Source of the DNA: Maribacter arcticus
GTDB taxonomy: Bacteria; Bacteroidota; Bacteroidia; Flavobacteriales; Flavobacteriaceae
Direction of reading: 5' to 3'
Assembly: GCF_900167935.1 (NCBI RefSeq)
Contig: NZ_FUYL01000012.1
Span: 1 to 64,000, forward strand
Length of the DNA stretch: 64,000 nucleotides
Of the stretch, positions 34,630 to 51,624 are shown in pieces. Position numbers and translations under genes: made by a program. Below the pieces are notes generated by a model that worked only from the letters and a program-made list of their open reading frames with translations, made no database searches and was not told the origin of the DNA. Every line of letters begins with the position of its first letter. The stretch's first letter is position 1.

Positions 34630-35748
34630 TTAGTTCTCCAAATCAAAATAATAAGCTCCCTTTTCACCAGTATAGTGAAAGGGGATTTTATTTTTTAAAC
34701 AAGTCATTCTCCAGCGGTCAATATAACTTCGGTAATTACTGCCATCAGCAATAATTTCTTTAGGGTTGATCCTATCTATGAATCTCTCAAGATTAATTTT
34801 TGGTGATTGGGTTAATAGAATTGTTTCCATTGATGTGCTTTTAGGATAAATACCTGCACTATCTAAAACCAGTAGTATTTCATTTTTAAAAGAGTAGCTA
34901 TTCTTCAAAGAATCGAATTGGGTCAATTCTATTCGTTCAGCAGTCTGATAATCTGAAATCAGATTGTTAGCCATTTCCGTCGAATTCGATAAGATGGATA
35001 AATTCCTGCCGCTTCTATTGAATAGGATACTCCTTTTGGTTTGATGTAGAACAATTGCTTCCGTTATTTTGGATGCTTCAATTTTTTGAAAAGAAGTATA
35101 GCATTGAAAACATAGTAAACTAATCAAAAATATAGCGATGCGTTTGTAGGTAAATAGGGTACAGGCTTTAATAAACAAAACGATGGTTATAATAGACAGA
35201 ATAAGTTGTCCGAAATCGAACGAAATAGAACTGAAAATAAAACTTTCTTGTTTCGCGACCCAGCCGATTAAATTGTTCATTAGGTTTATTATTCCATTAT
35301 AAAACCATACAATTTGTGAGGGAAGCCAATTTATCAGGGAAAGGAATATCACTAAAATACCTATACCTAAAATAACACCTAAAGCAGGAACTATTATTAA
35401 ATTGGAAATAAAAAATAATCCTGGAAATTGATGAAAGTAATATAGACTTATTGGCAATACACCCAATTGGGCAGCTATACTTACACAGAGAAGTTGCCAA
35501 AAATATCGGACAAACGTGTTCTTCGGAAAATACAATTTTTTAAGCAAAGGAAAAATCCATAATATAGCGAATACTGCCGCGTAACTCATTTGAAAGCCAA
35601 CCTGAAATAATAAACTGGGATTAATAAAAAGTAGAATGAATAATATAGATAAAGCTAGAATGTTAAAGGAGTTGCTAGGCCTATTTAAATATATCGCATA
35701 AGCTACGAATGTGAACATTGTTGTAGCGCGAATAATACTTGTTATCAA
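34630..35748 (-). pseudogene. comEC: comEC/rec2, 3' half only, cut by an integrated element
   Basis: About 372 residues of a ComEC DNA-uptake channel are readable. The competence-domain stretch SIIRATTMFTFVAYAIYLNRP is followed by a series of membrane helices and a C-terminal metallo-beta-lactamase-like remnant region (VLDSAGIYPKSTSMETILLTQ, PKEIIADGSNYRSY). Full flavobacterial ComEC proteins are about 650-700 residues, so the N-terminal OB-fold domain and first helices are missing. Homology fades just beyond residue 1, about 40 bases from the start of a large serine recombinase. No ATG begins this frame; the apparent first codon is TTG. The remaining half should lie beyond base 64000. Natural transformation would be lost unless the element excises. 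Confidence 0.85.
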
Positions 35749-35787
35749 ACCAAATATGGTACAAACTAAATTTATTATATTAGTGTT
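35749..35787. other. Probable attachment junction of the serine-recombinase element in comEC
   Basis: This is the interval between recognisable comEC sequence and the start codon of the large serine recombinase. Large serine recombinases are usually encoded right beside their attachment site and cross over at a central dinucleotide, so the attL or attR core should lie here or slightly into either side. The interval is AT-rich with no repeat visible inside the window. The partner end is outside. Confidence 0.55.
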
Positions 35788-37395
35788 ATGATAGGAATAT
35801 ATTGTAGAATTTCCAGAGAGAAGTTAGATGGTAAGGATAGGAGTATTAATGACCAGAAGTTGTTAGGAATAGAATTATCTGAAAAATTAAAACTTCCTTA
35901 TAAAGTATATATTGATGAAGGGATTTCTGGTACTGATGAAATTAAAAACAGACCCGAATTTTCAAATCTGTTGGATGATGTTCAAGATGGTTTAGTTACT
36001 CATATCTATGCTTATGATCAATCTAGGTTAGAACGTAATCCACAAACACGTTTCGCTTTTAAGAATTTACTTAAAGAAAATAACACCAAATTATATACAG
36101 AAACTGGGGAGGTTGATTTGTATGATGATGAATTGGAGATGTTAGGGGATATTGTTTCCATAATGAACTCTTACTATGTCAGAATTACCACGAAGAAAAT
36201 TAAGTCAGTTATAAAAAGGAATGTAAGTTCAGGAAAAATACACGGTTTACCTGCTTACGGTTATACAAAGGATGAAGATGGTATAATGATAGTTGATGAG
36301 GAAGAAGCTAAAATAGTAAAATTAATATTCAAACTTTCTTTGGAAGGTAAAGGTCAGAGAACAATAGCTCGTTACCTGAATGAAAAGAAGATTCCAACAC
36401 GATATCAGAAATTAAATCAAGAATATAAAAGCACTAACTACAATACTAATAAAACAGTTGTAAAGAAAGGGAGTGAATCTAAATGGGGTCATTCCGTGGT
36501 TCGAGGGATACTAATAAATCCTGTATACAAGGGTGTTAGAAAATTTATGGATGAAATATATGATTGTCCAGTAATTATTAAACCTCAACTATGGCAAAGA
36601 ACACAGGATAATCTAATATTAAATTCTAGATATACGGGTAAACCTACCTATCATAAATATCTTTTGAATAATATATTGTATTGTGGTGAATGTGGTAGAA
36701 GATATTTAGGTAGATCAACAGATAGTAAGAGAGGAAATCCCTACATGTGTTCTTCTAAACAAAGAATTCCAAGTGAATGTGATAATAGAAATATTCAACA
36801 ACCTAAAATTGAATGGTTCGTTTGGAACAAATTCTTTGTTGATAAAGAACTGTTAAACATAGTGAAGAATCATTTTAAGGAAACGGAAATAGATGATGTA
36901 CCGAAAAGAATATCGAAAGAATTGACCAACCTTAAAAGGGAACTTAAACAATTAGAGAGTAGGAGAGGGAATGCGATTTCGATGGTGTTAGATGGGACTT
37001 TGAGTAAGACTGATATCAAATCTGAACTTAGAAAGATTGATTTGAAACGGGAAGATTTGAAAGTGAAAATTTATAATATAAGGGAAGAGCAGGAAGTACA
37101 AAAAAAACAACTAAAAAATATTGATAAGGTTGATGAGGATTTAGATTTTATTAAAGAGAATTTACCTTTCAAAAGAAAACAGGACTTTATTAAAAAATGG
37201 ATAAATAAAATAGAAATACTGTTTCATGATCCATATTACCTAATAGCTTTTGATTTCAATATACCCAAACTAAAACCACAAACTTTTTATATTCACAGAA
37301 AGTACGTTGGTTTGGAGGAAACATTGAAAACTGGTACTTGGTTAGATCCAAAGGAATGGGTTAATAAGAAAGGAAAGTTTACTAAAAATAAGTAA
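35788..37395 (+). CDS. Large serine recombinase (integrase) of the element
   Basis: 535 residues. The N-terminal resolvase domain begins IGIYCRISREKLDGKDRSI, with the catalytic Ser at residue 9 and YAYDQSRLERNP further on. The recombinase domain (about 170-280) includes GLPAYGYTKDEDG. A zinc ribbon near 297-330 has YCGECGRRY and the YMC and ECDN cysteines. A coiled coil (about 370-450) and a C-terminal tail follow. This is the complete architecture of phage-type large serine integrases, which insert DNA unidirectionally and need a directionality factor to excise. It sits at the very edge of the element and is convergent with a small serine recombinase. Confidence 0.93.
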   Translation: MIGIYCRISREKLDGKDRSINDQKLLGIELSEKLKLPYKVYIDEGISGTDEIKNRPEFSNLLDDVQDGLVTHIYAYDQSRLERNPQTRFAFKNLLKENNTKLYTETGEVDLYDDELEMLGDIVSIMNSYYVRITTKKIKSVIKRNVSSGKIHGLPAYGYTKDEDGIMIVDEEEAKIVKLIFKLSLEGKGQRTIARYLNEKKIPTRYQKLNQEYKSTNYNTNKTVVKKGSESKWGHSVVRGILINPVYKGVRKFMDEIYDCPVIIKPQLWQRTQDNLILNSRYTGKPTYHKYLLNNILYCGECGRRYLGRSTDSKRGNPYMCSSKQRIPSECDNRNIQQPKIEWFVWNKFFVDKELLNIVKNHFKETEIDDVPKRISKELTNLKRELKQLESRRGNAISMVLDGTLSKTDIKSELRKIDLKREDLKVKIYNIREEQEVQKKQLKNIDKVDEDLDFIKENLPFKRKQDFIKKWINKIEILFHDPYYLIAFDFNIPKLKPQTFYIHRKYVGLEETLKTGTWLDPKEWVNKKGKFTKNK

Positions 37396-37411
37396 GAGGA
37401 AGAATTTTGGT

Positions 37412-38158
37412 TTATTTAGATTTCAAATCTACATATTCAGTTAAACCCAATTCTTTATAAACATCACTCTCTTTCATAACCTCAACCTTTCTTTTTTCCA
37501 TAATCTCAATTGAAAGGTTCTTACGGTCTTTCTTCATGTATTTTTTAATTTTGGTAACTGTGTTCTTGTTGAGGTTTCCATCCATCAACCTTATAACCTC
37601 ACTACCTTTCATACCCATGTTCAAATAATCTACAGCCTTAGAATGTTTCTTTAGGAAAGCTGATGGTGTTTCTTTTCCTCTTGGGGTTCTGTTTTTATAC
37701 TTTCCTTTGATCTTGGCTATTTCAATTCCCTCTAATTGACGTTCTTTTCTGATTTCGTTCTCAACCTCACCGAAACTACCCAAAATGGAAACCATCATTT
37801 TCATCACATAGTTCATCTTCCCATCAACTAGGGTTCTCATTCCAAGGTTTTTAATATAAAGTGAAATACCACGTTCGTGGATGTAATCAATGAATCCAAG
37901 TAAGGATTTAAGGTTTCTAGCTAATCGATCGATGGTATGAATCTGAATTTCATCAATTGTACCTTCATCGATCATCACCTTCAATAGTTTTCCTTTATCC
38001 CTTTCAAAAATCGGAATAGTACCGGAACACTTATCCTCCAGTATGAATTCATAATCCTCACTATTTACCAATTGTCTTTCAGTCGATTGTTGGATAGTTG
38101 AACAACGAACGTAAAGAACTACTCTTTTCAAATCCTCCTTATTCTTATTGTCTTTCAT
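37412..38158 (-). CDS. Small serine recombinase (resolvase/invertase type)
   Basis: 248 residues. The catalytic domain starts VVLYVRCSTIQQSTERQ with Ser20, then IHTIDRLARNLKSLL and an E-helix (MVSILGSFGEVENEIRKERQ). The C-terminal region ends in an HTH-like segment (GMKGSEVIRLMDGNLNKNTVTKI). Family members resolve cointegrates or invert DNA. Its stop is 16 bases from the stop of the large recombinase, so the two converge without a visible terminator. The 138 bases before its start, to the leader repeat at 38297, are AT-rich with no named site. Confidence 0.87.
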   Translation of the reverse strand: MKDNKNKEDLKRVVLYVRCSTIQQSTERQLVNSEDYEFILEDKCSGTIPIFERDKGKLLKVMIDEGTIDEIQIHTIDRLARNLKSLLGFIDYIHERGISLYIKNLGMRTLVDGKMNYVMKMMVSILGSFGEVENEIRKERQLEGIEIAKIKGKYKNRTPRGKETPSAFLKKHSKAVDYLNMGMKGSEVIRLMDGNLNKNTVTKIKKYMKKDRKNLSIEIMEKRKVEVMKESDVYKELGLTEYVDLKSK

Positions 38159-38296
38159 ATTTCCTAATAATAATACCCATATTAATAATGCATTAAAAAT
38201 AGGAATAAAGTCTTGTATACCCTATTTTCAGGAGGTTTTTTCGATGAAGCACCTTTCCTATTTTCGAGTATACATTTATATTGGGAATAATATTTG

Positions 38297-38735
38297 GTGA
38301 GTTTATGAACTCATTAAATTGGGGACAGGTTTCGTGTAACTCCAAAGTCTGATTCACACTTTACCCTTAAATAAGTGGCTCTCATATAGAACCCAATTTT
38401 TTTATTGTGGGTAAAACTCGATTTGATAAGTTGGTTACATATTCAATATTGAAAACACTCTCTCTTAGGAGTTAAAAAAGAGAAGAAACAAAGTACACAT
38501 ACTGAAACGCTTTATAAACCTCAAATAAATACTTTTGTGGGTATACATTAAAATCGTTTAAATAATTTTTAAGAAATTGGTCAACGTCACAGCTTGGTGA
38601 CATTCTGAATATTTTCGTTCACGAACATATATTAAACGAATCTACTTTTGAATTATCCATAAACATAGGAATATTCGTAGATTAACGTCTTATAAAATAT
38701 GTTCTATATATAATTGTTGTAGTCCATTAGACGAA
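38297..38735 (+). repeat. Long non-coding leader, copy A
   Basis: The 611 bases between the small recombinase and the next gene hold no ORF. From 38297 they match, over about 440 bases, the leader at 47687-48150. Shared landmarks in order are GAGTTTATGAACTC, ATTGGGGACAGGTTT, CCCAATTTTTTTATTGTGGG, TTTGATAAGTTGGTT, ACACATACTGAAACG, AAATCGTTTAAAT, an AGCTTGGT block, TATTAAACGAAT and ATTGTTGTAG. A hairpin-forming CCCAAT/ATTGTGGG and two short dyads are conserved. TACTTTTG at 38643-38650 fits the TAnnTTTG promoter box. It ends about 35 bases before the nuclease gene at 38770, so it probably carries that gene's promoter and a transcribed leader. Confidence 0.8.
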
Positions 38736-38769
38736 ACAAGAAACATCCTACAAAAAACAAAAATTCAAT

Positions 38770-39816
38770 ATGGAAAAATGGAATGAACTATGTTACATAC
38801 TATCTGAAAATTTACCTTCAAATACAAGTGAACAGCTATTTGAATTAAAAGTAGTTCAGGCATTTGAAAAATTGGGATGGAGTCAATTTAATAATGAAAT
38901 TGTGGTGCGGAAAAGTATTCAATTAGGAGCTTCAAATAGAATTGTTCCTGATTTAATTTTGAAATCAAAAGATAAAGGAAATCTTTTCGTTGTAGAAGTT
39001 AAAAAACCTTCTCTCGAAATTAACAATTCTACTTACAAAGGGCAACTATCGTCATTTATGGCAATTACGAGAGTTGAATTAGGGATTCTAATTGGTAATA
39101 AATTACAGCTATTTTTAGACGGCAAATTTTTTAATGAAAATGGCATTGTCTTAATCGACGAAATTGAGTTTAAAAGAGATAGTGAAAAAGGACTAAAGTT
39201 TGTGCAATTATTCAGCAAGGAAAATTACAATAGAGAAAATATTGAAAATCACGCTCAAGAGAAAATTCAAAAATTAAAAGAAATAGAAGATTTTAAAAGA
39301 CTGAAAAATCAATTACTCTCTAAAAATTATAATGAAAAAATAATTGATTATTTAAAAACAGAACTTTTAAAAGAATATAACGAAAAGACAATTGAAAAAG
39401 TACTCAAAGTATTAGATGTTAAAATTGAGAATAAAAACAAAATAGTTCCTGTCGAAAATTACCAAAAAAGTAGAACGAAAAGATATAACTCGGTTGAAAA
39501 TTTTAATGAATTTACTGGAAAACTTCCAATCGGAAAATATGTGCGAAAAACATTTAACGAATTAGTTAAAAATAATTTAATTGACAGAAATGAAATTGAA
39601 AGATTACAAAGAGCTGACTATTCAAAAATGACATTTGATATTCAATTTCCTTTTTTGGCTAAAGAAAACTCTACCTATTACGAAAGAGTTAGGTATTGGA
39701 AAAATCCATATCAAATAAATGGCGAAATATTTTATGTGACTTCTCAATGGTATGAAGTTCCTGCTAATAATGACAGACCATATTATGAGGAATGGTTAAA
39801 GAAAATGAAAGAATAA
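38770..39816 (+). CDS. Stand-alone HsdR-N-type (PD-(D/E)xK) nuclease-like protein
   Basis: 348 residues. The N-terminal 130 residues form a restriction-endonuclease-like core: RIVPDLIL with Asp61 and LFVVEVKKP with Glu76 and Lys78 give the D-ExK triad of type I restriction HsdR N-terminal domains. A Glu/Lys-rich helical linker (about 155-230) leads to a C-terminal domain of about 115 residues (FTGKLPIGKYVRKTFNELV, TFDIQFPFLAKENSTYYERVRYW) of a family I cannot name. There is no helicase part and no adjacent methylase. It is likely a defence or regulatory nuclease whose C-terminal domain recognises the target. It follows leader copy A directly. Confidence 0.75.
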   Translation: MEKWNELCYILSENLPSNTSEQLFELKVVQAFEKLGWSQFNNEIVVRKSIQLGASNRIVPDLILKSKDKGNLFVVEVKKPSLEINNSTYKGQLSSFMAITRVELGILIGNKLQLFLDGKFFNENGIVLIDEIEFKRDSEKGLKFVQLFSKENYNRENIENHAQEKIQKLKEIEDFKRLKNQLLSKNYNEKIIDYLKTELLKEYNEKTIEKVLKVLDVKIENKNKIVPVENYQKSRTKRYNSVENFNEFTGKLPIGKYVRKTFNELVKNNLIDRNEIERLQRADYSKMTFDIQFPFLAKENSTYYERVRYWKNPYQINGEIFYVTSQWYEVPANNDRPYYEEWLKKMKE

Positions 39817-39952
39817 TAACGCACTACAAGCCGTGTAAAAATAATTGCTTGGTTCTCGCCTACTTGGAAAATTCTGCGGATTTCCCAAAGCCAGTTTTTA
39901 TCTGGAGAGGTTCGTGCTTTAACACGCCATAGCTCATATACAAAAACGTTAT
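39816..39952. repeat. Palindromic intergenic element between nuclease and lipoprotein genes
   Basis: ATAACG (39816-39821) at the stop of the nuclease gene is mirrored by CGTTAT (39947-39952). Inside are partial stems: TTGGAAAATTC near 39859 opposite GGATTTCCCAA, and a TTAACACG-rich segment. The length (about 137 bases), the AACG/CGTT ends and the position just after a stop codon are like the other intergenic elements of this island. I infer a cassette-boundary element. No ORF is present. Confidence 0.5.
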
Positions 39953-39996
39953 GCATAATTAACCAGATAATTTCAATTCAAAATGGCTTATTCCAC

Positions 39997-40881
39997 ATGA
40001 AGAAAATAGACATCATATTAATTGTTTTCATAGCTTTATTTTGGGGATGTGGGGATGGAGTATCTAAACATAATATCTCTGACAACTTTGAAAACTCTAT
40101 TCAGACAAGTGAATACTATGATGATGATATTACTTATAAAATTGCTTTAAATAAGAAAATTACCGTTGATTCATTGAAAAGTTTAGACAACATAGTTCTT
40201 GAACTACAAGTTTTCGTCAATAACAAGCCTGTAAAAATTGACGAACAAAATAAAATTGAAATTAGTGGATGTTCCTATTTAGATTTTCCTGAAATTATCA
40301 TTTCAGTGGTAACATTTAAGGATAAACTGGCTATTGGATGGCGTATTGATGGTTTGGGTTCTGTATGTGGGAACACATACTCTTCTAAGACATACCTCGT
40401 TTTACCGCAGAAACATAGCACTTGTTTTCTTTACTCTTTGGCTTCTAAAGGTGAACCATTAATTGAAGTCCGTTCAGCTAACAGTATAGAAATCTTAAGT
40501 TACTATCAAGAATGGGGACGAACTGGTACAGCCAGCAGTTTTTTTGTTCCCATGAAGACAATTCTAAAGATAGATTCCAATTTTTCTAAACCGGTAGAAA
40601 TAGAAAAAGGAGATCTTCTAATCGAAATAGAAAAGTTAGATAATGAAATTTGCGAAAGCTATCTTAAAGGAAGTTATCTGGGTTTGTTTACTGCTGCATT
40701 GAATGATAGGAACGCAGAATTATTGGAGTATGCCTTTATCAACTTCTTTGATGAAAACGACGCATCCTGGTACAATTCACAAGGAATCGTATATACTCCG
40801 AATGAAATTTCTGACCTTAAGAGAGTTTTAGTGAACAATCAAAAATTACCGGATAGATTTAAACATTTATTAAGACATTAA
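39997..40881 (+). CDS. Lipoprotein of unknown function
   Basis: 294 residues. The lipobox is MKKIDIILIVFIALFWGCG, with Cys near residue 18. The mature part is mixed alpha/beta with a Cys pair (ISGCSYLDFPEI and GLGSVCGNTY) that could form a disulfide, and a C-terminal helical region (ALNDRNAELLEYAFINFF). I recognise no family. It lies between two palindromic elements and has no gene partner at close spacing, so it behaves as a single-gene cassette. Confidence 0.75.
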   Translation: MKKIDIILIVFIALFWGCGDGVSKHNISDNFENSIQTSEYYDDDITYKIALNKKITVDSLKSLDNIVLELQVFVNNKPVKIDEQNKIEISGCSYLDFPEIIISVVTFKDKLAIGWRIDGLGSVCGNTYSSKTYLVLPQKHSTCFLYSLASKGEPLIEVRSANSIEILSYYQEWGRTGTASSFFVPMKTILKIDSNFSKPVEIEKGDLLIEIEKLDNEICESYLKGSYLGLFTAALNDRNAELLEYAFINFFDENDASWYNSQGIVYTPNEISDLKRVLVNNQKLPDRFKHLLRH

Positions 40882-40894
40882 ATGAATAACAAAA

Positions 40895-40970
40895 AATGCT
40901 TAACAAAACCTAAAATTCATGTCCACTGCGTACCTTGTGGCCGCGAAATTTTAGCCAAATCGTTGGCATT
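40895..40970. repeat. attC-like hairpin site
   Basis: A 76-base imperfect inverted repeat. AATGC (40895-40899) pairs with GCATT (40966-40970); TAAC (40901-40904) opposes GTTG (40962-40965); CTAAAATT (40910-40917) pairs perfectly with AATTTTAG (40947-40954); CCAC (40923-40926) pairs with GTGG (40937-40940). Unpaired spacers lie between boxes, as in integron attC sites. It fills the gap between two lipoprotein genes. No integron integrase is visible, so the recombination role is inferred. Confidence 0.5.
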
Positions 40971-40982
40971 AATTTGAACCGA

Positions 40983-41855
40983 ATGAAATTCAAACTTACA
41001 TACATTTTGATTTTTGTATTATTAGTTTCTTGCAAACAAAATAAGTTGGATGCTGCTACTGATTTTAAAAGTAAGAGAGTATCCGAATACATCTACTCTT
41101 CTGAATCAGATTCAGACCCAATTAATGAAAATTGGGTTAAAGAAGATTCACTCTTTTTATCTGAATTAACTGATATTCTAAAAAATGATGAAAGTGATAT
41201 ACTCGATATTCTTAAAATAGATGAAAGTGATAGGAGAACCACACTTGGTTTTGGATATGAACAAATCGAGGCAAGTATGGGGAAAGGCTATGCTGGAATT
41301 TATTACAATTTAATATTAAAAGATGGTCAAGTTGCATCTTATGAGTTCACACCAAATTTCCCAAATAATAAAGACATAAAAGAGCGTTATTTAAAAATGT
41401 TTTCAGGAATTTTTAAAATAAGTGATAATACACTTCATAAACGATATTTCAATATTTCGGAAATGGAAAAACCTTTAAAAAACATAAATCCAGATATTTC
41501 GTTGAATGAAAATTTAAGATTCCTTATGACACCATTTTCTGGAACAAGGTATGGTTTTAGTGGTGGGTATTCAGGAAGCACTTTTACGAATAGAGCAATA
41601 TTTATAGAAGAATCCAAAAGCATAAATCCTGAAGTTTGTCAAATACTTATGAATAGCATAAATTCTGGAACAAGACTTATGGGAATTGAATATTATATGA
41701 AAAACAAATCTGATTTTAAAAATCAAGATTTAATCAATAATTGGATTGACAAAGTTTACTCAGAATTACCAACAATAGAAACTTTAGAAGGCTGTTTTGT
41801 GATGCAAAGAGATAGTAAAGCATTGGTTGCGGAGTATGTAAAAAGAAAAAACTAA
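40983..41855 (+). CDS. Lipoprotein of unknown function
   Basis: 290 residues from the ATG at 40983, which starts a clear lipoprotein signal (MKFKLTYILIFVLLVSC). The in-frame codon at 40935 lies within the attC-like hairpin and would precede it with unrelated residues. The mature protein has DESD repeats near residue 65-80 (LKNDESDILDILKIDESDRR), a glycine/tyrosine stretch (GTRYGFSGGYSGSTF) and a C-terminal helix. No family recognised. Confidence 0.75.
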   Translation: MKFKLTYILIFVLLVSCKQNKLDAATDFKSKRVSEYIYSSESDSDPINENWVKEDSLFLSELTDILKNDESDILDILKIDESDRRTTLGFGYEQIEASMGKGYAGIYYNLILKDGQVASYEFTPNFPNNKDIKERYLKMFSGIFKISDNTLHKRYFNISEMEKPLKNINPDISLNENLRFLMTPFSGTRYGFSGGYSGSTFTNRAIFIEESKSINPEVCQILMNSINSGTRLMGIEYYMKNKSDFKNQDLINNWIDKVYSELPTIETLEGCFVMQRDSKALVAEYVKRKN

Positions 41856-41896
41856 TATTAATCTGTATCCGTATTTTAGGACTTGACATTTAAGGA

Positions 41897-42463
41897 CTGA
41901 TAATAAATCGAGTTTTTAGTTTAATTTTTACACTTGTTATTTTAACAAGTTGTGCGGACACGGATAAAAAATGGAAATTTCAAGAGATTGATGAGACAAA
42001 ATTAGTCTTGCAAGAAAATATTCTCACGGCCGATTATCTGAAAACGGTTGAATTCAAAAATCATCTTTACTCAAAAACATATGATACAATTATAGAGGTA
42101 ACATCCTATCAGTACGAATCAGAGCTTTGGAAAAATAATAAAATGACTGGCCGATTTAATGCTTCCACTTACGTATATCCAAAGTCTGACTTAAATGATA
42201 TGGACGAATATTTTTCTTTCCACATAGCTGGATACGATTTTGAGGCATCCATATCACCTAATTTCAGATATGAGAAAACTTATGAAATTAAATTGCCTTA
42301 TAGAAAATATCAAATTATTAAAGCATTCAAAAATGACACCCTGAATATAGGACTAGCATTCCATATTTTGAAAGAAAATAAAATAATTTTCACAACAGTT
42401 ATGACAAACGATAAATTTGAATTGGAAATTGAAAAGTTGATTCAAAAACTGAATGAAATATAA
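41897..42463 (+). CDS. Lipoprotein-like gene with no canonical start codon
   Basis: The frame opens after a TAA at 41891. It encodes an N-terminal hydrophobic run ending in a good lipobox (RVFSLIFTLVILTSCADTD) and a mature part of about 165 residues (WKFQEIDETKLVL, YESELWKNNKMTGRFNAS). No ATG or GTG precedes the signal, and the first TTG (42008) lies far inside the mature part. CTG at 41897 or an ATA/ATT just after it are the only possible starts. Either the start has mutated and the gene is silent, or a rare start is used. The family is unknown. Confidence 0.5.
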   Translation: MIINRVFSLIFTLVILTSCADTDKKWKFQEIDETKLVLQENILTADYLKTVEFKNHLYSKTYDTIIEVTSYQYESELWKNNKMTGRFNASTYVYPKSDLNDMDEYFSFHIAGYDFEASISPNFRYEKTYEIKLPYRKYQIIKAFKNDTLNIGLAFHILKENKIIFTTVMTNDKFELEIEKLIQKLNEI

Positions 42464-42743
42464 AAAATGTAAGCTTCCCTTAAAACCGAACTGATACTGA
42501 AAATTCCAAAAAGCCCAAAGGAAATTAAAAAGTTCTTAGGTTTTAATGTTTTCATATTTTATCACTTACTTTGAAATATTACTTAAAATGTTTCCCTCAA
42601 AAACTAAATATCTATTTTAAGATATAATGGATCATTTATTCTATCAACTTCTTTCTTCATTAAACATCTTGACAAGTTGACAATACAGAAGTCCTTGTCA
42701 TTCATATCTTTTATACTATCATTTAAAGGTTGGGGTATTTTTG

Positions 42744-44726
42744 TCACTCGACCCTATTATCATATTCTCTATACCATTCCAGTATTTCCATACTAGGTAT
42801 GACAATATCTCCGTATTTGTCAATAAAACTCTTTTCATAATCACCTTCTAATCGCACTCTCGCATATCCATTCCTAAAATCTCCAGCCTCAATGAATTCA
42901 ATTTGAGTAATTTCATTTCCCATTCTATCTACATACCCATATTTATCATTTAATTTCACTCTTAGAATATCATCTTCTACTCCCCAAATACTGTCATACT
43001 TAAAGTCAGTAAGTAACTTGCCTTCTTTATCAATAACCGCCCATTCATAATTTTTTTTAACAGAACTTAACCCGTTTTTAAAATTTAAACAATAATCATA
43101 TTTTAAAGGTATTACCACATTGCCTTCCCTATCAATATAACCTTGTTTCTCATTGAGTTCAACAGATGATAAACCTTCATGAAAATCTGAAACCTTATCA
43201 TATTTTAGTGGAATTATCTCTTCTCCTTTATCATTTATGAATCCATATTTATCATCAATCATTACTTTAGCTATGCCACCTCTAAAATCATCTGTATTGT
43301 CATACCTTATTGAGGTTATTTCTTTTCCTTTATTATCTATATAACCCCATTTATCATTTAATTCAACTCTACAAAAATTTTCTGTAAATGACCTTACATT
43401 GTCATATTTAATTGGTGTTACATCATTACCACTTAAATCAATCAATCCGCATTTATCGTTAGTTGTAATATCTGCTAAATCCTGTTTATGACATTTACTA
43501 ATATTCCGAAACTTCAAAGGAACTATGGTATTATTATCAATATCCACTACTCCATTATTATATTGGGTATAGGTGTGATATTTGGTTTGCCCATCTGTTC
43601 CTTTATATTTGGATTTACGTTCGATTCCAATAAAGTCTGTAACAATAAAAAAATCATTGTTAATCTTAGAAACTGAACGATACTTTAAATGAATTTTTGA
43701 ATTTCCGTTTCTATCAATAATATGATAATTTTTATTTGAATTAACTAAACTATAGCCATTCTCAAAATCACTTGGGTGGTTTTCATAAATAAGCGGTATA
43801 ACTTCTTTACCCTCAATATTTATAAAACCCCATTTGTTGTTTAATTTAACCTTTGCTAATCCCTCGCAAAAATTACCAGCTGCATCATAAATTATTGGAA
43901 TAACCTCTTTACCATTTCTATCAATAAAACCAGCCTTTTTTCCTACCCTAACACTTGCAAATCCTTCTTTAAAATATACATCTATTAAATCACCATACAT
44001 ATTGTAATCTGGACGATATTTAAAAGTTGTTAATTCATTTCCCTCTCTGTTTATAAATGCCCATGTACCTTTACCCAGAATGGCAGCCACCTGTTCGTTA
44101 TAATTACAAACATAATAATACTTTGGCCTTATAACTTCTTCACCATTCTTATTAATATAACCCCATTTACCTTTACAAACAACTCTTGCAAGTCCATCAT
44201 GAAATAATGACGTAGGTAACTCATTCACACAAAATAAATGACTATCGTATTTTAGCTCCGTAATATGAATACCTTTTGAATTAATAATACCCCATTTCCC
44301 ATTCAATTTTATAGCTCCATATCCATCATCAAAAACTATTGCTCCATCATAGATTATTTTCGTAATGGGTTTTTTATTAGAATTAATTAATCCACAGAAT
44401 CCATTTTTCCATACTATTTGTGTATCGCTTGAGATTATTTCTTTTGCTATGTCCTCTTTTAATGAAGGTTCATTTTCAAAGGCTGAATTATTATTTTGAA
44501 TAATTTTAATCAAGGAGTTAAATGTGACTAAATTTTGTTCAATTTTCATTAGAGCCTCGTCATATTTATTAGACTCTATAAGGCTACTAATTAAATCTTT
44601 ATCCTCCAAAATATCAAAATCTTTTAATTTATTAATCTGTTCTTGTATCAGATGATATTCTTTTAAAAGAATATAATTTTTTATCAAATTAAGCCTAGAA
44701 ATTATATTAGAAATTTTTTCTGTCAT
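42744..44726 (-). CDS. WG-repeat protein
   Basis: 660 residues. After an N-terminal helical region (about 1-85, Leu/Ile/Lys/Glu-rich) the protein is built of about twenty WG repeats of roughly 30-35 residues, each with a core such as KWGFINIEGKEVIPLIYE, DKYGFINDKGEEIIPLKYD or KWGYIDNKGKEITSIRYD. No signal peptide or membrane helix is seen, so it is probably cytoplasmic. WG repeats form beta-propeller or solenoid-like binding surfaces of unknown ligand. Its C-terminal end is 280 bases from the preceding lipoprotein gene; that gap holds no site I can name. It is the only long minus-strand gene in this part of the island. Confidence 0.88.
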   Translation of the reverse strand: MTEKISNIISRLNLIKNYILLKEYHLIQEQINKLKDFDILEDKDLISSLIESNKYDEALMKIEQNLVTFNSLIKIIQNNNSAFENEPSLKEDIAKEIISSDTQIVWKNGFCGLINSNKKPITKIIYDGAIVFDDGYGAIKLNGKWGIINSKGIHITELKYDSHLFCVNELPTSLFHDGLARVVCKGKWGYINKNGEEVIRPKYYYVCNYNEQVAAILGKGTWAFINREGNELTTFKYRPDYNMYGDLIDVYFKEGFASVRVGKKAGFIDRNGKEVIPIIYDAAGNFCEGLAKVKLNNKWGFINIEGKEVIPLIYENHPSDFENGYSLVNSNKNYHIIDRNGNSKIHLKYRSVSKINNDFFIVTDFIGIERKSKYKGTDGQTKYHTYTQYNNGVVDIDNNTIVPLKFRNISKCHKQDLADITTNDKCGLIDLSGNDVTPIKYDNVRSFTENFCRVELNDKWGYIDNKGKEITSIRYDNTDDFRGGIAKVMIDDKYGFINDKGEEIIPLKYDKVSDFHEGLSSVELNEKQGYIDREGNVVIPLKYDYCLNFKNGLSSVKKNYEWAVIDKEGKLLTDFKYDSIWGVEDDILRVKLNDKYGYVDRMGNEITQIEFIEAGDFRNGYARVRLEGDYEKSFIDKYGDIVIPSMEILEWYREYDNRVE

Positions 44727-44871
44727 TACATTAACTTATTTTAGAGTTAAATACTTTTTTTAACCGATAAGTTATGTTAAAAATAAAAATGTTATCATAA
44801 TAGGGGTTCTCTTAAGGGATGAGGAGTGGGTGACCTCATTACTGATTAAATTAAATTTCTTCATTGATTAA

Positions 44872-45135
44872 TCATTTGATAATTTGGGTTATTGAAAAAC
44901 CCTTCTCATTATTATTTACCAATACCTCCTCTAATAACTCTTCTGAAAACTCATTTACAACAGAGAATGAAATAATCTCATTTAAAGGATTAGAATCATA
45001 TATATTTTTAGTCTCTGAGGACTTTATATTTTTGCCTAGAAGATATCCTCGCTCCCATGTATTATGATACCAATTAGGATTATCACATTCACAAAAATCA
45101 TAATTAAAACTGCAATTGCATTTTGGTAATTCAGC
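44872..45135 (-). pseudogene. Cysteine-rich protein remnant, start lost
   Basis: A frame on the minus strand is open from just after a stop at 45138-45136 to TGA at 44874-44872, about 87 codons, with no start codon near its beginning. It reads ELPKCNCSFNYDFCECDNPN, then WYHNTWERGYLLG, and ends in a charged helical tail (EFSEELLEEVLVNNNEK). The Cys/Trp pattern and codon use look protein-like, unlike the plus-strand frame over the same bases. It may be the 3' part of a gene cut by rearrangement. The 145 bases to the WG-repeat gene hold no other gene. Confidence 0.4.
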
Positions 45136-45386
45136 CTATTTTTCCAAACTAGCAAGAGCCATTTTGGAATATTAAGATAATATGTGTTGTTTCAAACTCT
45201 GAATTTGACCTATTATATGAAAATGGATTTCCTCGATTTAGATGTTTTAAAACATTATTAAATTGATAATGCAGAAAAGCGAGGAATTATAATTCCTTTC
45301 ATTAGCTCTAAAATAACAAAAAAGCAAATCAAAAAACTACTTAAAATAGTATTTGTGTTACAAATGTTTTACAATGAGAAATGAGA

Positions 45387-45412
45387 AAAGGGTTACATTT
45401 CTGTAACCCTTT
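45387..45412. repeat. Perfect 11-bp hairpin
   Basis: AAAGGGTTACA (45387-45397) pairs perfectly with TGTAACCCTTT (45402-45412) around TTTC. No T-run follows on the plus strand and only a mixed A/G run on the other side, so it is at best a weak terminator. It stands 11 bases from the tRNA-tail-like sequence, the position a tRNA terminator would occupy. Confidence 0.55.
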
Positions 45413-45422
45413 GAAAACTAAG

Positions 45423-45445
45423 TGGTCCCACCTGTAATAGAACCA
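45423..45445 (-). pseudogene. tRNA 3'-end remnant (T arm and acceptor strand)
   Basis: On the minus strand this reads like the end of a tRNA: a GGTTC T-loop start, then ACAGGTGGGACCA. Compared with a normal GGTTCGATTCCAGG...ACCA ending, a few bases of the T-loop and stem are altered, and the sequence upstream does not continue as a tRNA. It could be a decayed attachment-site duplicate left by a tRNA-targeting element. Short, so chance resemblance is possible. Confidence 0.35.
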
Positions 45446-45486
45446 ATACCTTTATGCCCTAATAATTAGTATATTAATAATTATAG

Positions 45487-45527
45487 TGGAACTCCAATAG
45501 TTCCAGTTTAGAACTTCTGGAGTTCCA
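45487..45527. repeat. 41-base nearly perfect dyad
   Basis: TGGAACTCCA (45487-45496) pairs with TGGAGTTCCA (45518-45527) in all ten positions; inside it AGTTC (45499-45503) pairs with GAACT (45511-45515), leaving a 7-base loop. No T-run follows. It could be an operator, a recombination site or a transposon end. Confidence 0.55.
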
Positions 45528-45894
45528 ACGAAATCTATAAGTTTCCAATAAAAATTTCAATCTTTTTCAAACATTTCTTCACGTTTTCTCAAACTTCCTA
45601 TACTTATATATGGTACTGGTATCCATCAAAGGGGTAAAATACCAATCACCCTATCACCATCAACAATACGATTGAGTACAGGAGTAGGGTTAGACATCGG
45701 GTAGTAATCTGTGGGATTGAAACAATATCCAATAATAACGGATGAGGTTTCTCCGGTAGTACCAAAAATAATTTTATTATAAATCAGATATGGGTGAGAA
45801 CGGACTGGTCTGAGGAAATATAAAATTAATCACTTAAAGGAAGAGAACTAAACTTCTCCGAAAGGGGATTCGTGTATTTAATTTAAAAATAACA

Positions 45895-46104
45895 ATGGAA
45901 CTAAACAGATACGAAACAGTTAAGAGTGTAATTAATAAACTTGATAAGATAATTTCCAAATTTCTAAATGAGGCAAAACCAAACTTAAAAGAACTATTCT
46001 CTTTAATAGAAATGAGAAGTACTTATGTAAAAGAACTTGATGGACTGACCAGAAGTAAAAACACACATGAAATGTTTAAAAACAAAAATAGATATGGAAA
46101 ATAA
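45895..46104 (+). CDS. Small helical protein of unknown function
   Basis: 69 residues, charged and helical (RYETVKSVINKLDKIISKFL, KELFSLIEMRSTYVKEL), with no signal or cysteine. It overlaps the start of the HTH gene by 11 bases, so the two are cotranslated. I recognise no family. Pairing with an excisionase-like HTH gene suggests a role in element maintenance. Confidence 0.55.
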   Translation: MELNRYETVKSVINKLDKIISKFLNEAKPNLKELFSLIEMRSTYVKELDGLTRSKNTHEMFKNKNRYGK

Positions 46105-46288
46105 TCACAGAATAACAAAACAAGAATTAGAGAAGATGTATGGAGTAGATAGAACCACAATAGAGATCTGGAGAAGAAGATATGGACTTCCTATAATAGA
46201 AATATCATCTCATTCAAAATACATCAGGAGAGATGAGCTAATAGCTTGGGAAGATAGAATGAAGGATAAGTTTCAAGTTGAGGTTTAA
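46094..46288 (+). CDS. Excisionase-like HTH protein
   Basis: 64 residues from the ATG at 46094; the frame extends upstream to 46067, but that part overlaps the previous gene and lacks HTH sequence. The protein is a single winged helix-turn-helix of MerR/excisionase type: ITKQELEKMYGVDRTTIEIWRRRYGLP, then KYIRRDELIAWEDRM. Such small proteins act as recombination directionality factors or repressors. It is a candidate partner for the large serine recombinase, but distance and type leave this open. Confidence 0.65.
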   Translation: MENNHRITKQELEKMYGVDRTTIEIWRRRYGLPIIEISSHSKYIRRDELIAWEDRMKDKFQVEV

Positions 46289-46322
46289 AATTCAAACTAT
46301 ATGAAAATTTGAATTTGATATA

Positions 46323-47249
46323 CTATCCTTTAAATCCTATCCAAAACTTCTTTGGAAAGTTCTTCTCATTCGATAATCGAAGTTCTTCTAAATGTTTATC
46401 AGATATTCCTTCGGACTGTAACATATCAACCAGTCTTAAATTTCTTGTTTCAAGTCTTTGAATTTCAGATTCATCAACTATTCTATTTGATTTTGAAGAA
46501 TTACAACCTCTATGCGTATAAACTAGATTCCACAAATCATCAGAATACATAAAAGACCACGGAATGACATGGTCTATTGATATATCTCCATCAAAATCTT
46601 CCCCACATATAAAACATTTTTTATCAGATAGAGTAAGATACTTATGGAACTTGGATAGAGATTTCCTACGGATATTTCCTCTATCAGTTATCTTTATCTT
46701 TTGAGATATTCTAGGCGAGGAATTAAAATTTTCAAGGATTTGAGACCATCTATAATTGATTATCTCAAAGAGTAAATCCGAATACTCCTTTAATATTTCA
46801 GGATTTGGTAATACAATGATTTCGTTCCCTTTATCCAATTCGTAAAGAGAAAATTCTTTTCTATCAACTTTAAGAAACCGATAACTTACATCCTTTTTTA
46901 ACTGATTATTCAAGAATTTAATATCTAAGTCGATTTCATCCTCCACTCTTTCAAACTTAATGGGCTTAAATCCATTATCCTTTTGATATTCATCAATTTT
47001 CTTCTTTACATACGTTATTAAAACAGGAGGTTTCTTTGGATTAGGACTTTGTTGTAAATCAAAGAATATGGTTTGATTCCAATAATATTTGAACATATTT
47101 CTTGAAATCCTATCAAAGGATATTATAGAATTATTTCCACCCTCCAAACAACATTCTATTATGGATTTACTCCATCCCATTTTATAGGTATTGTCTACAC
47201 TTCCGTTCTTAATTACCGTGAACCAATCTTTAATGGTTTCATTCATCAT
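46323..47249 (-). CDS. HNH endonuclease
   Basis: 308 residues. The nuclease domain is C-terminal: KKCFICGEDFDGDISIDHVIP with Cys212, Cys215 and the Asp226-His227 pair, then Asn241 and RGCNSSKSN with His246 and Cys249, giving a zinc-ribbon-stabilised HNH fold. The N-terminal 200 residues are mixed and resemble no family I know; they may recognise the target. Its start lies inside the end of the HIT gene (11-base overlap), so the two are translationally coupled. A defence function is plausible because it sits in an accessory island. Confidence 0.82.
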   Translation of the reverse strand: MMNETIKDWFTVIKNGSVDNTYKMGWSKSIIECCLEGGNNSIISFDRISRNMFKYYWNQTIFFDLQQSPNPKKPPVLITYVKKKIDEYQKDNGFKPIKFERVEDEIDLDIKFLNNQLKKDVSYRFLKVDRKEFSLYELDKGNEIIVLPNPEILKEYSDLLFEIINYRWSQILENFNSSPRISQKIKITDRGNIRRKSLSKFHKYLTLSDKKCFICGEDFDGDISIDHVIPWSFMYSDDLWNLVYTHRGCNSSKSNRIVDESEIQRLETRNLRLVDMLQSEGISDKHLEELRLSNEKNFPKKFWIGFKG

Positions 47250-47607
47250 AATTCTGTTTTGATGGAATTACACCTCTAACTCCCCCTCGGGGATTTTCAG
47301 TATCTCCTTTGTATCTTGGAATGATATGAACATGGGTATGTAAAATTGTTTGTCCACTTTCTTCTCCCACATTCATTCCAATATTAAACCCTGAGGGATT
47401 GAATTCTTTTTGAAGATATTCCTTTAACTCATCTATAATTGAGATAAGGGATATCTTTTCCTCCTTAGTACACTCAAAATAATCCTTCCGATGGTGTTTT
47501 GTAATAATCAATGAATGACCATTAGTAACAGGGTACTTATCAAAAGAAACAAGCCAATGTTTATTCTCAATTATTGGTTTTGATATATTACAGAAAGGAC
47601 AATCCAA
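47239..47607 (-). CDS. HIT-family nucleotide hydrolase/transferase
   Basis: 122 residues. A CPFC pair at residues 3-6 can bind zinc, TNGHSLIITKHHRKDYFECT follows, and the histidine triad HTHVHIIPR lies at 90-98, so the active site (His90, His92, His94) is intact. HIT proteins hydrolyse or transfer AMP from dinucleotides or adenylated molecules. Unlike housekeeping HIT proteins it is the leading gene of a two-gene unit with an HNH nuclease, so it could make, remove or sense a nucleotide-modified signal. The 79 bases before its start separate it from leader copy B. Confidence 0.85.
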   Translation of the reverse strand: MDCPFCNISKPIIENKHWLVSFDKYPVTNGHSLIITKHHRKDYFECTKEEKISLISIIDELKEYLQKEFNPSGFNIGMNVGEESGQTILHTHVHIIPRYKGDTENPRGGVRGVIPSKQNYDE

Positions 47608-47686
47608 ATTAAAACAGTTTAGTAATTATTGCTATAACAAATAGCACATAATTCGAAGCATACCTCATAATTAATAATAAAATATA

Positions 47687-48150
47687 GTGAGTTAATGAAC
47701 TCATTAAATTGGGGACAGGTTTTACGTAACCACAAAGCTTCTTTTTAGTTTTGTCCTTGAAATACCCATGTTCATATCGGCCCAATTTTTTTATTGTGGG
47801 TAAAATCTTATTTGATAAGTTGGTTTTAAATTCAGAATTGAAAACACTTTGTCCTAGGGTATAATAAAAAAGAGAAGATACAAATTACACATACTGAAAC
47901 GTTCCATAAACCTAAACTAAATAGTGCTGTGGATGATATATTAAAATCGTTTAAATATCTTTTCAAGAAATTGGTCAAAGCCATAGCTTGGTAATATTCT
48001 GTATATTTTTGTTTACAAACATATATAATATGCATATTAAACGAATAGGACTTTTTTGAATTACCCATAAAAAAGGGAATATTCTTATATTAACGTTATA
48101 AGAGAAATATAGTAACTTGTTACTATAAGCAATTGTTGTAAGCCATTTAA
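47687..48150 (+). repeat. Long non-coding leader, copy B
   Basis: The 578 bases between the HIT gene and the gene at 48186 hold no ORF of merit. From 47687 they match leader copy A (38297-38735) with shared GAGTTAATGAACTC, ATTGGGGACAGGTTTT, CCCAATTTTTTTATTGTGGG, TTTGATAAGTTGGTT, ACACATACTGAAACG, AAATCGTTTAAATA and a final ATTGTTGTA. A dyad that reads TTCG-TTCA-CGAA in copy A reads TTTG-TTTA-CAAA here, with paired changes that keep the symmetry. It stands about 35 bases before the first small gene, just as copy A stands before its nuclease gene. Confidence 0.8.
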
Positions 48151-48185
48151 AAAAAACCAAAAAATAATTAAATATTGATAATATT

Positions 48186-48407
48186 ATGTTGGAATACGAG
48201 GACGAAATTGAAAATGAAACAGATTTACTTCGCTGGCTATATTTTTACATTGAAAAGAAATCCAAAAAAGGAGTAAAACAAAAACATTTAGAAAAAATGA
48301 TTTTGAAAATTGAAAATATACTAAACATTACCATAAATGATGAATTGGGCTTTGGGTATATTCCAGATTTGGATAGAGAAGAACTCGATGATAATTTACC
48401 ATTCTAA
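48186..48407 (+). CDS. Small acidic protein, first of three related small genes
   Basis: 73 residues: a helical core (LLRWLYFYIEKKSKKGVKQKHLEKMILKIENI, positions about 13-44, quoted here only as its landmarks LYFYIE and MILKIE) and an acidic tail (DLDREELDDNLPF). It resembles the two genes that follow in the order of aromatic and Leu/Ile positions. It directly follows leader copy B. No family is recognised. Confidence 0.6.
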   Translation: MLEYEDEIENETDLLRWLYFYIEKKSKKGVKQKHLEKMILKIENILNITINDELGFGYIPDLDREELDDNLPF

Positions 48408-48412
48408 TTCCT

Positions 48413-48562
48413 ATGACAAAAAAAGTACTACTTTATTATATTCTTGGTTATTTGAATAGCCAAAAAAATTCAAGGAATACTGAATCCTTAGAATTGTCCT
48501 ATGTCCTTAGACTAATCGAAAAATATACTCGAATTTCAAATAAGAATAACTCAAATGAATAA
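48413..48562 (+). CDS. Small protein, 49 residues, related to its downstream neighbour
   Basis: ATG at 48413 to TAA at 48560-48562. It begins MTKKVLLYYILGYLNSQ and ends EKYTRISNKNNSNE. The start closely resembles that of the next gene (MNKKDILYYAYGYLKF), and both continue with a Leu/Arg-rich helix and a conserved RY or KY pair. It starts 5 bases after the previous stop and overlaps the next gene by 8 bases, so the three are one unit. Confidence 0.6.
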   Translation: MTKKVLLYYILGYLNSQKNSRNTESLELSYVLRLIEKYTRISNKNNSNE

Positions 48563-48884
48563 AAAAGATATACTTTATTATGCTTACGGTTATTTAAAAT
48601 TTCTATCCGAAAGTAATAATAGTGACGAAGATTTATATATACGACTGAATATCATGATTGCACGTTATTCAAAGGATAAACTCATTAGAAGCCATCGTAG
48701 GTATCAAAACAATTTAAATAGAGTAATATGGGATATAGAAGATAAAATTGGACACCGAAATGCATTTCCTGAACTTTATAGTAATCAATCTTATAATAAT
48801 AATAATAATGATGATGATAATGGAAATGACAATTACAATCCTGATTTAGATTTAGACCAGCAACATCCTGATTTCTATGTCTGA
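48555..48884 (+). CDS. Small protein with Asn/Asp-rich tail
   Basis: 109 residues. The N-terminal half (MNKKDILYYAYGYLKF, LNIMIARYSKDK) is a longer paralogue of the 49-residue protein before it. A basic helical middle (SHRRYQNNLNRVIWDIEDK) and a tail of Asn and Asp runs follow, encoded by AAT/GAT repeats, which may vary in length by slippage. No family recognised. It is the last gene of the run that follows leader copy B. Confidence 0.6.
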   Translation: MNKKDILYYAYGYLKFLSESNNSDEDLYIRLNIMIARYSKDKLIRSHRRYQNNLNRVIWDIEDKIGHRNAFPELYSNQSYNNNNNDDDNGNDNYNPDLDLDQQHPDFYV

Positions 48885-48890
48885 ATAAAA

Positions 48891-49077
48891 AACGGCTTAC
48901 AATAACGTATATAAAACATAGCTATTACAGGCTTTCCGAAAGGTTTTTGTGTATTTGCCAAGTCCGCCAAATCTTTTGGATTTGGCTTTTTGAGAGAGTA
49001 AAGTAAAAAAGAAAATTTAAAAATTCGGCTTGTGTTAATCCGAATGTTCCGTGTCTTTTTGCACGCTACGTTATTCA
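48891..49077. repeat. Intergenic palindromic element, copy 1
   Basis: AATAACGTA (48901-48909) is mirrored by TACGTTATT (49067-49075). Within it, CTTTCCGAAAG, GCCAAATC/GATTTGGC and ATTCGG/CCGAAT form hairpins. The stretches AAGTCCGCCAAAT, TGTGTTAATCCG and GTGTCTTTTT-CACGCTACGTT recur in the element at 58521-58716. It follows the stop of the previous gene by 6 bases. It codes for nothing visible and looks like a mobile or recombination element typical of gene-cassette boundaries. Confidence 0.6.
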
Positions 49078-49145
49078 AATTTGAAAAACAAAGACTGACA
49101 ACGAGTAGACGAATAAAAAAATAAACTATTAAATAAATTAAAAGT

Positions 49146-49442
49146 ATGAAAATTGAATGTCGAAATTGCAAAAATATAGAAATCGTGAACACAGACTTGT
49201 TTGTGAAAATCATTGGTGGTGCATTACCTGTTGGTGGGTTTTGGGCTTGGACAACTTATCTACTTGCTGGTACTGGTTTTGCATTACCTATTGTCATAGC
49301 AATGATTGCAGGCGGAACAGGTATGCTTATTTATAAAGACAAAATCGTTAAATGGCTTACAAATAAGAATTATAAATGCTCAAAGTGTAATAGTATAAGT
49401 TGGGATACTATGAAAGAAAACGTCCCTAGAAAGAAAAAATAA
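49146..49442 (+). CDS. Small membrane protein with split zinc ribbon
   Basis: 98 residues. A CRNC pair near residue 5 and a CSKC pair near residue 78 flank two hydrophobic segments (about 22-40 and 44-62, glycine-rich), so the two halves of a zinc ribbon could meet on the cytoplasmic side of a membrane hairpin. The C-terminus is basic (NVPRKKK). I recognise no named family. It lies directly after a palindromic element and is spaced from the next gene by 46 bases. Confidence 0.65.
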   Translation: MKIECRNCKNIEIVNTDLFVKIIGGALPVGGFWAWTTYLLAGTGFALPIVIAMIAGGTGMLIYKDKIVKWLTNKNYKCSKCNSISWDTMKENVPRKKK

Positions 49443-49488
49443 GTACCCATTAAGCTATGTAAAATGGTTTGCTGGTGTTCCCCTATTC

Positions 49489-50001: not shown

Positions 50002-50031
50002 GCGAGTTAAATTATATATAGTTGTAAAAAA

Positions 50032-51590: not shown

Positions 51591-51624
51591 AACATCTAAA
51601 TTTTAAAATATTATATAAGTTATC

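What the first reader, a model, noticed from the sequence alone, without database searches (positions are those of the whole stretch)
34630..37395. An integrated element splits the competence gene comEC
ComEC is present only as its C-terminal half (about 372 of the usual 650-700 residues). Sequence similarity ends about 40 bases from the start of a large serine recombinase that faces away from it. The N-terminal half is not in the window, so at least 28 kb separate the halves. An insertion into comEC would shut off DNA uptake until the element excises, comparable to known insertions in comK or comM in other bacteria. I know of no such arrangement described in Flavobacteriaceae.
Basis: partly seen in the sequence, partly recalled or inferred. 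Interest (0 to 1): 0.82.

Follow-up and report, generated by a model that had tools for sequence, protein, structure and literature searches.

The report
Mobile element splits DNA-uptake gene comEC
A 29-kilobase mobile DNA element has inserted itself at an exact spot inside comEC, the gene for the channel that brings in foreign DNA, in a marine bacterium, and its recombinase belongs to a family whose other members mostly break a different DNA-uptake gene, comM, which suggests such elements retarget among genes of the same pathway.

Summary
Confirmed and extended. The missing N-terminal half of comEC lies on the same contig, 1.05 kb past the window. A 29,315-bp element bounded by ACT cores (35737-35739; contig 65052-65054) splits one 674-codon comEC; joining the flanks restores SASIIRA as in Maribacter relatives. 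The reconstructed attP is symmetric about CT (21 of 26 pairs; best of 2,000 shuffles 18). No other comEC was found; comM is intact.

The closest integrase found, in another genus (G330), also abuts a comEC split at the same serine codon. Of 16 further relatives, 14 sit in comM, another competence gene, and 2 in neither. Rooted on phage integrases, the comEC pair nests among comM-targeting ones, and the two sites show no detectable similarity. So one integrase family probably retargeted from comM to comEC.

Elements in competence genes are known, including serine-recombinase phages in streptococcal comEC (PMC4260502) and one Variovorax prophage (PMC9658991). New, as far as searched, are the Bacteroidota comEC lineage and the within-pathway switch. 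Excision and loss of transformation are inferred.

The parts
34630..35739 (-). comEC, C-terminal half (residues about 306-674 of the joined gene)
   Evidence: PF03772 E 5.8e-33; 71-76% identical to the ten best-matching Maribacter loci; joined ORF open for 674 codons
35737..35739 (.). left core ACT (AGT in comEC sense = serine codon 306); crossover dinucleotide inferred as CT/AG
   Evidence: shared by both junctions in the comEC frame and centre of attP symmetry; same codon as in G330
35740..35765 (.). left half of attP (TGTTATCAAACCAAATATGGTACAAA), inverted near-copy of the right half at contig C5:65027-65052
   Evidence: 21 of the 26 innermost pairs complementary, the central CT counted as the first pair; best of 2000 shuffles 18
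35740..64000 (.). integrated element, 29,315 bp core to core; continues beyond the window to the second core at contig C5:65052-65054. G+C 30.3% against 35.0% and 34.8% in the flanks
35788..37395 (+). large serine integrase, 535 aa, intact
   Evidence: Pfam Resolvase, Recombinase, Zn_ribbon_recom; PHROG 95 integrase 2e-87
37412..38158 (-). small serine resolvase/invertase, 248 aa; 63% identical over 112 aa to one in the G330 element
   Evidence: PF00239; PHROG 125
38292..38319 (.). 28-bp palindrome ATTTGGTGAGTTTATGAACTCATTAAAT, possible resolvase site 1 of 4
   Evidence: score 22 of 24 to a consensus drawn from these sites; best in 1.30 Mb of 80 control loci 18
47682..47709 (.). 28-bp palindrome, possible resolvase site 2 of 4 (sites 3 and 4 are outside the window at contig 64573 and 64877)
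   Evidence: score 22 of 24; a direct copy of the following about 0.42 kb lies at 38.3 kb, 77.6% identical
38770..39816 (+). cargo: protein with an HsdR_N-like domain
   Evidence: PF13588 1.6e-5, just over cut-off
46323..47249 (-). cargo: HNH endonuclease
   Evidence: PF13395 1.5e-9
47239..47607 (-). cargo: HIT-domain protein
   Evidence: PF01230 3.5e-19
54557..57949 (+). cargo: RecQ/DpdF-like helicase with a DUF559 nuclease-like domain, candidate defence gene
   Evidence: PADLOC DpdF 5.1e-122; TIGR00614 252 bits, cut-off 219.8; DUF559 2.2e-5. NCBIfam DpdF equivalog not met (141.7 of 550 bits)
58878..61085 (+). cargo: C5-cytosine DNA methyltransferase
   Evidence: PF00145 1.5e-53
61082..62263 (+). 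cargo: MvaI/BcnI-family restriction endonuclease next to the methyltransferase
   Evidence: PF15515 5.1e-80
62772..63167 (+). cargo: weak match to a replication protein (G2P/ORF2-like)
   Evidence: PF23343 26.0 bits against a cut-off of 27.8: below cut-off

Best explanation
A 29.3-kb integrative element of a Maribacter-like bacterium is integrated by its own large serine integrase into an attB site inside comEC (serine codon 306, central dinucleotide AG in comEC sense). Insertion cuts the inner-membrane DNA channel into a 305-residue stub with a short element-coded tail, and a C half without its start, so natural transformation should be off while the element is in place; precise excision would restore the 674-codon gene. 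The integrase belongs to a Flavobacteriales family whose members mostly use comM as attB; an ancestor of the window and G330 integrases switched from comM to comEC. Likely advantage: a host that cannot take up DNA cannot cure the element by recombination with an empty allele. Shown by sequence: boundaries, exact restoration on joining, attP symmetry, recurrence in a second genus, comM targeting by most relatives found, nesting of the comEC pair in the tree. Inferred: excision, loss of uptake, direction and reason of the target switch.
For: Both halves and no other comEC; exact joined ORF and attP symmetry; joined protein 69-74% identical over its length to seven Maribacter loci printed, and conserved gene order (11 of 80 loci printed); second insertion at the same codon with a related integrase and resolvase; attP of both elements 27 of 54 identical at zero offset (next best offset 24), 2 of 5000 shuffles as high; 14 of 16 further relatives in comM, with comM restored on joining in the 3 of 14 joined; rooted tree; dprA and an intact comM in the genome. 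Among 354 of 397 family genomes with a comEC match, six had two matches, and of these only G000 and G330 are split at this place beside an integrase. In Riemerella, placed by its authors in the Flavobacteriaceae, the ComEC gene is essential for transformation (PMC8459023, passages read).
Against: No reads, circular form or transformation assay were available. The comM-to-comEC change is one inferred event; the fork joining the comEC pair to its nearest comM sisters has 90/85 support and the five-member clade 96/94 with the outgroup, but 93/93, not starred, in the 15-row tree; without a root the data do not give a direction. The outgroup branches are very long. attP symmetry in G330 is within the range of shuffles (17, maximum 20), and in the three comM elements joined the symmetry centre is not consistent and in one (G427) not at the core. 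G330 is a draft: its comEC halves are on two contigs, so the insert was not seen whole. No paper that I read shows natural competence in Maribacter.
Confidence: 0.8

Rival explanations
1. The insertion is real and site-specific but its place in comEC is incidental: serine integrases tend to use conserved codons of widely present single-copy genes, and interruption of competence is a by-product without selection.
For: Both cores lie in conserved protein motifs (SAS-[IV][IV]-RA in ComEC, HHTISDVA in ComM). Conserved coding sites are used by many integrases, e.g. 33 in one prolyl isomerase site (PMC10083194, passages read).
Against: The switch went from one competence gene to another with no detectable similarity between the two sites (best ungapped 17 of 40, shuffle mean 17.5). 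Competence genes are reported as enriched targets of large serine recombinases (PMC10083194).
Confidence: 0.35
2. The element is a fixed remnant: it once integrated by this integrase but can no longer excise, so comEC is a permanent pseudogene.
For: No phage structural or conjugation genes were recognised among the element ORFs scanned; no excision factor was identified.
Against: The integrase is complete with three domains; both att halves are present and the two comEC halves show no decay, since the joined frame is open for all 674 codons.
Confidence: 0.25
3. Assembly artefact or chimera.
For: Draft assembly of 22 contigs.
Against: One contig of 139,787 bp runs through both junctions; flank synteny on both sides; att anatomy and an independent case in another genus.
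Confidence: 0.01

Closest known systems
Streptococcal prophages Phi1207.3 and Phi10394.4, and Tn1207.1 (PMC4260502, PMC8321556, PMC4288039; passages read)
   Same: Element with serine recombinases at one specific site inside comEC (celB; PMC4260502). For Tn1207.1, comEC split and DNA import lost (PMC8321556). PMC10383233 (one passage read) says Phi1207.3 impairs transformation and that its excision restores a low level.
   Different: Other phylum. Phi1207.3 carries three resolvase-family proteins, phage structural genes and macrolide resistance; reported site GA. Whether it is the same comEC codon could not be tested: the record has no chromosomal flank.
Variovorax prophage VAI-C_pp_2 in comEC/Rec2 (PMC9658991, table row read)
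   Same: Prophage at comEC; its listed 16-bp core can be read as Ala-Ala-Val-Val-Arg, resembling the ComEC motif hit here (my reading, not aligned).
   Different: Tyrosine integrase, Variovorax.
Elements in comM of Aggregatibacter, Acinetobacter and others (PMC4774983, PMC11472951; passages read)
   Same: Competence gene interrupted by mobile elements, in PMC4774983 at an orthologous position in several genera; comM is also the target of most relatives of this integrase.
   Different: Window element is in comEC; other hosts and recombination enzymes.
Large serine recombinase survey (PMC10083194; passages read)
   Different: Its main text does not contain the word comEC; supplements not read.

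Membership tests
Large serine integrase | Resolvase N-terminal domain, Recombinase domain and zinc ribbon in one protein of about 450-700 aa | tested here: met
Large serine integrase | Short identical core, attP of about 50 bp with inverted arms about a central dinucleotide | tested here: met
   Window: 21 of 26 pairs symmetric about CT. G330: 17 of 26 about TC, within the range of shuffles (maximum 20)
Large serine integrase | Catalyses attP x attB integration | not testable with these tools
   needs a recombination assay
Site-specific element in a competence gene | Target gene split at one site and restored exactly when flanks are joined | tested here: met
Site-specific element in a competence gene | Same site used by independent elements | tested here: met
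   G000 and G330 at the same serine codon
Site-specific element in a competence gene | Interruption abolishes transformation | not testable with these tools
   no phenotype; essentiality of ComEC in Riemerella from PMC8459023, passages read
Prophage | Terminase, portal, capsid or tail genes | tested here: not met
   None in the Pfam scans or in the 10 ORFs scanned against PHROGs, apart from a tape-measure match of 19.9 bits on a 174-aa protein, judged chance. ORFs under 100 aa were not scanned, save one of 82 aa, nor one antisense ORF (51754-52068)
Integrative and conjugative element | Relaxase and type IV secretion genes | tested here: inconclusive
   None in the Pfam scans of the ORFs given; small ORFs not scanned, see above

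The most novel reading that the evidence does not exclude
A single serine-integrase family in the Flavobacteriales is adapted to disabling natural transformation: its ancestor used comM, and one branch moved to comEC, an unrelated sequence in the same pathway, where it hits one serine codon in two genera whose serine codons differ (AGT and TCT), with the matching attP core changed accordingly. Retargeting is then steered by the function of the target gene rather than by likeness of the site.
Probability: 0.4. Interest if true: 0.72.

Novelty: new variant of a known kind. Interest (0 to 1): 0.52.

Why it matters
Whether mobile elements interrupt competence genes by accident or because it protects them from being cured is debated (PMC4774983, PMC11472951, passages read). 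An integrase family that moves from one competence gene to another unrelated one is a natural test of it: site likeness is removed as the explanation, and the family can be traced through many genomes. It also gives a Bacteroidota integrase with predicted attP and attB, in a family in which natural transformation has been shown in few members (of those I met, Riemerella species).

Tried and rejected
A second comEC copy: none found. Invasion of comEC by other elements in the family: six of the 354 family genomes with a match showed two PF03772 matches. Apart from G000 and G330, G300 and G343 have overlapping pieces (stop or frame change, no insert), G112 has one full copy plus a divergent second, and G170 has pieces on two contigs that end and start at other profile positions (47 and 57) and stays unresolved; G079, a partial single match at that cut-off, was also looked at. 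Limits: the match table was cut, so partial single matches in other genomes were not examined, and 43 of 397 genomes had no match; a split with one half missing would be overlooked. Viral contigs with the window integrase alone: none; with the two-row alignment one relative, L133. Phage and plasmid records: only distant relatives, all under 60% identity. A second draw of the family, centred on G049, gave no new match; the handles it listed had been seen before. Class search: only the window's own at E 1e-80 (335 genomes). Midpoint rooting gave the same nesting as the phage outgroup. L106 was first labelled 'other' and moved to comM after one search found the comM C half about 4.8 kb from its integrase. 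Site of Phi1207.3 within comEC: not testable, no flank in the record. Similarity between comM and comEC attB: none above shuffles, ungapped comparison only. attP symmetry in the comM elements: no consistent centre.

Full report
Observation. The ORF at 34630-35748(-) is the C-terminal part of ComEC and the ORF at 35788-37395(+) is a complete large serine integrase. A PF03772 search of the whole assembly (4.21 Mb, 22 contigs, rated 100% complete) found two matches only, the two halves of one gene on contig C5: 35170-35757(-), profile 71-264, and 65043-65282(-), profile 1-80. The contig runs unbroken between them (139,787 bp).

Boundaries. In the comEC frame the two junctions share AGT (ACT on the + strand) at 35737-35739 and 65052-65054, 29,315 bp apart. 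Joining the flanks there gives one open frame of 674 codons with SASIIRATTMF at the join, as in the Maribacter genes printed. Of the 11 intact loci printed (of 80), the joined protein is 69-74% identical over its length to seven Maribacter ones and 52-57% to the other four; the neighbours (POT transporter, peptidase, NlpC/P60 and lpxB; names recalled from sequence, not from a family call) lie in the same order, with partial or weak matches in L005 and L022 for the transporter and in L005 for the peptidase. The two element ends form an attP symmetric about CT: 21 of the 26 innermost pairs, the CT itself counted as the first, while the best of 2,000 shuffles reached 18. Element G+C is 30.3% against 35.0% and 34.8% in the flanks.

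A second case. In a search of 397 genomes of the family the closest integrase, 53-57% identical depending on the aligner, is in G330, another genus. It lies in the same place and orientation beside a comEC C half, and the N half is on another contig of that draft. The core there is TCTGT; the join gives an open comEC frame and falls on the same serine codon. Symmetry of the G330 attP is weaker (17 of 26, shuffle maximum 20), but the two attPs agree at 27 of 54 positions at zero offset (24 at the next best offset), which 2 of 5,000 shuffles reach. The inferred central dinucleotides differ (AG and TC in comEC sense), as the serine codons differ. Of 397 family genomes 354 had a comEC match and six had two; of these six only G000 and G330 are split here beside an integrase. 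Genomes with a single partial match were not all examined.

The integrase family. Apart from G330 I had 16 further relatives: 10 from the family search, 2 from the genus search (36 genomes), 3 from the order search (395 genomes) and 1 viral contig (E-value limits 1e-60 to 1e-80 in the genome searches). Looking at what lies beside each, 13 have ComM up to about residue 280 upstream of the integrase: in 10 the match ends 30-100 bp away, in L102, L133 and L104 about 0.23, 0.30 and 0.89 kb; L106 has the ComM C half about 4.8 kb away; L108 and L136 have neither gene in the 20 kb read. That is 14 of 16 in comM. In the 3 of 14 that I joined (G304, G427, G425), comM is restored at HHTISDVALVGGG with the core GATGT (in G427 GATGT on one side, GACGT on the other); attP symmetry there gave no consistent centre. 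The window's own comM is intact (511 aa). On a tree rooted with three phage integrases, the two comEC integrases are sisters (100/100) and lie in a five-member clade with three comM integrases (96/94), among further comM ones. The fork to the nearest comM pair is 90/85; in a 15-row tree the five-member clade has 93/93; the outgroup branches are long. The comM and comEC sites of the window's own genome show no similarity above shuffles (best ungapped 17 of 40; mean 17.5). The simplest reading is a change of target from comM to comEC.

Mechanism. The integrase joins attP to attB in comEC. The N half then reads 305 ComEC residues, the shared serine and a short tail from the element; the C half has lost its start. 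ComEC is the inner-membrane channel for transforming DNA, and is essential for transformation in Riemerella (PMC8459023, passages read). dprA is present in the host. So uptake should be off while the element stays, and back if it excises. These two steps are inferred. The likely gain for the element is protection from curing by transformation, as argued for other elements (PMC4774983, passages read).

Cargo. A C5 methyltransferase next to an MvaI/BcnI-family endonuclease, a RecQ/DpdF-like helicase with a DUF559 domain, an HNH and a HIT protein, an HsdR_N-like protein, a WG-repeat protein and a protein with thrombospondin type 3 and leucine-rich repeats. No phage structural or conjugation gene was recognised in the ORFs scanned, save a 19.9-bit tape-measure match judged chance.

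A second recombinase. A small resolvase lies beside the integrase; a 63% identical one is in the G330 element. Four 28-bp palindromes (21-24 of 24 to ATTTAATGAGTTnnnnAACTCATTAAAT, a consensus drawn from these sites) occur in 80 kb of contig, all inside the element; one of 19 lies beside the resolvase in G330, but L105, a comM locus, also has one of 19, and a host site of the contig scores 18. In 1.30 Mb of 80 control loci the best score is 18. They may be sites of the small resolvase that set off cargo blocks. This is a suggestion only.

Known or new. Serine-recombinase elements in streptococcal comEC are long known (2003 work cited in PMC4260502); comM, comK, comYC and comFA are known targets (PMC4774983); large serine recombinases are reported to favour competence genes (PMC10083194). 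Transposons in comEC are reported in Piscirickettsia (PMC12955456, passages read). I found no report of a comEC insertion in Flavobacteriaceae or of an integrase family moving between two competence genes in ten searches of the paper library, of which I saw listings and the passages named; that library lacks most subscription papers. I file it as a new variant of a known kind.

Noticed in passing
window 38292-38319, 47682-47709; L083 4574-4601 and 4878-4905; L123 506-533: Four 28-bp palindromes inside the element scoring 21-24 of 24, against at most 18 in 1.30 Mb of control loci, and a weaker one (19) in the G330 element; L105 also has one of 19. Possible sites of the small resolvase that divide the element into cargo blocks.
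   Followed up: partly
window 38286-38688 and 47676-48096: About 0.42 kb repeated directly at 9.39 kb distance, 77.6% identical, each copy starting at one of the palindromes: looks like a shared cassette leader.
   Followed up: partly
window 58878-61085: The cytosine methyltransferase has an N-terminal match to an arm DNA-binding domain (PF17293, 5.1e-7, residues 9-74), which I recall from tyrosine recombinases: an odd combination.
   Followed up: no
window 54557-57949 and 57927-58451: RecQ/DpdF-like helicase with a DUF559 domain overlapping a 174-aa protein without a convincing family: candidate defence pair.
   Followed up: no
L075 1-1089: A metagenome contig (coverage about 1 by its title) starts at ComEC residue 310, four codons after the insertion site; perhaps a third insertion broke the assembly there.
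   Followed up: no
G000:C21:238613-238756 (L161): A short comM fragment (profile 84-131, with a stop) lies on another contig than the intact comM and begins where comM elements split the gene; possible trace of an old comM insertion. No recombinase was seen by eye among the ORFs around it.
   Followed up: partly
L101, L106, L107, L124, L134, L135: In 6 of the 17 integrase loci searched a small resolvase (34-40% identical to the window's) lies near the integrase in opposite orientation, as in the window: a recurring two-recombinase pair.
   Followed up: no
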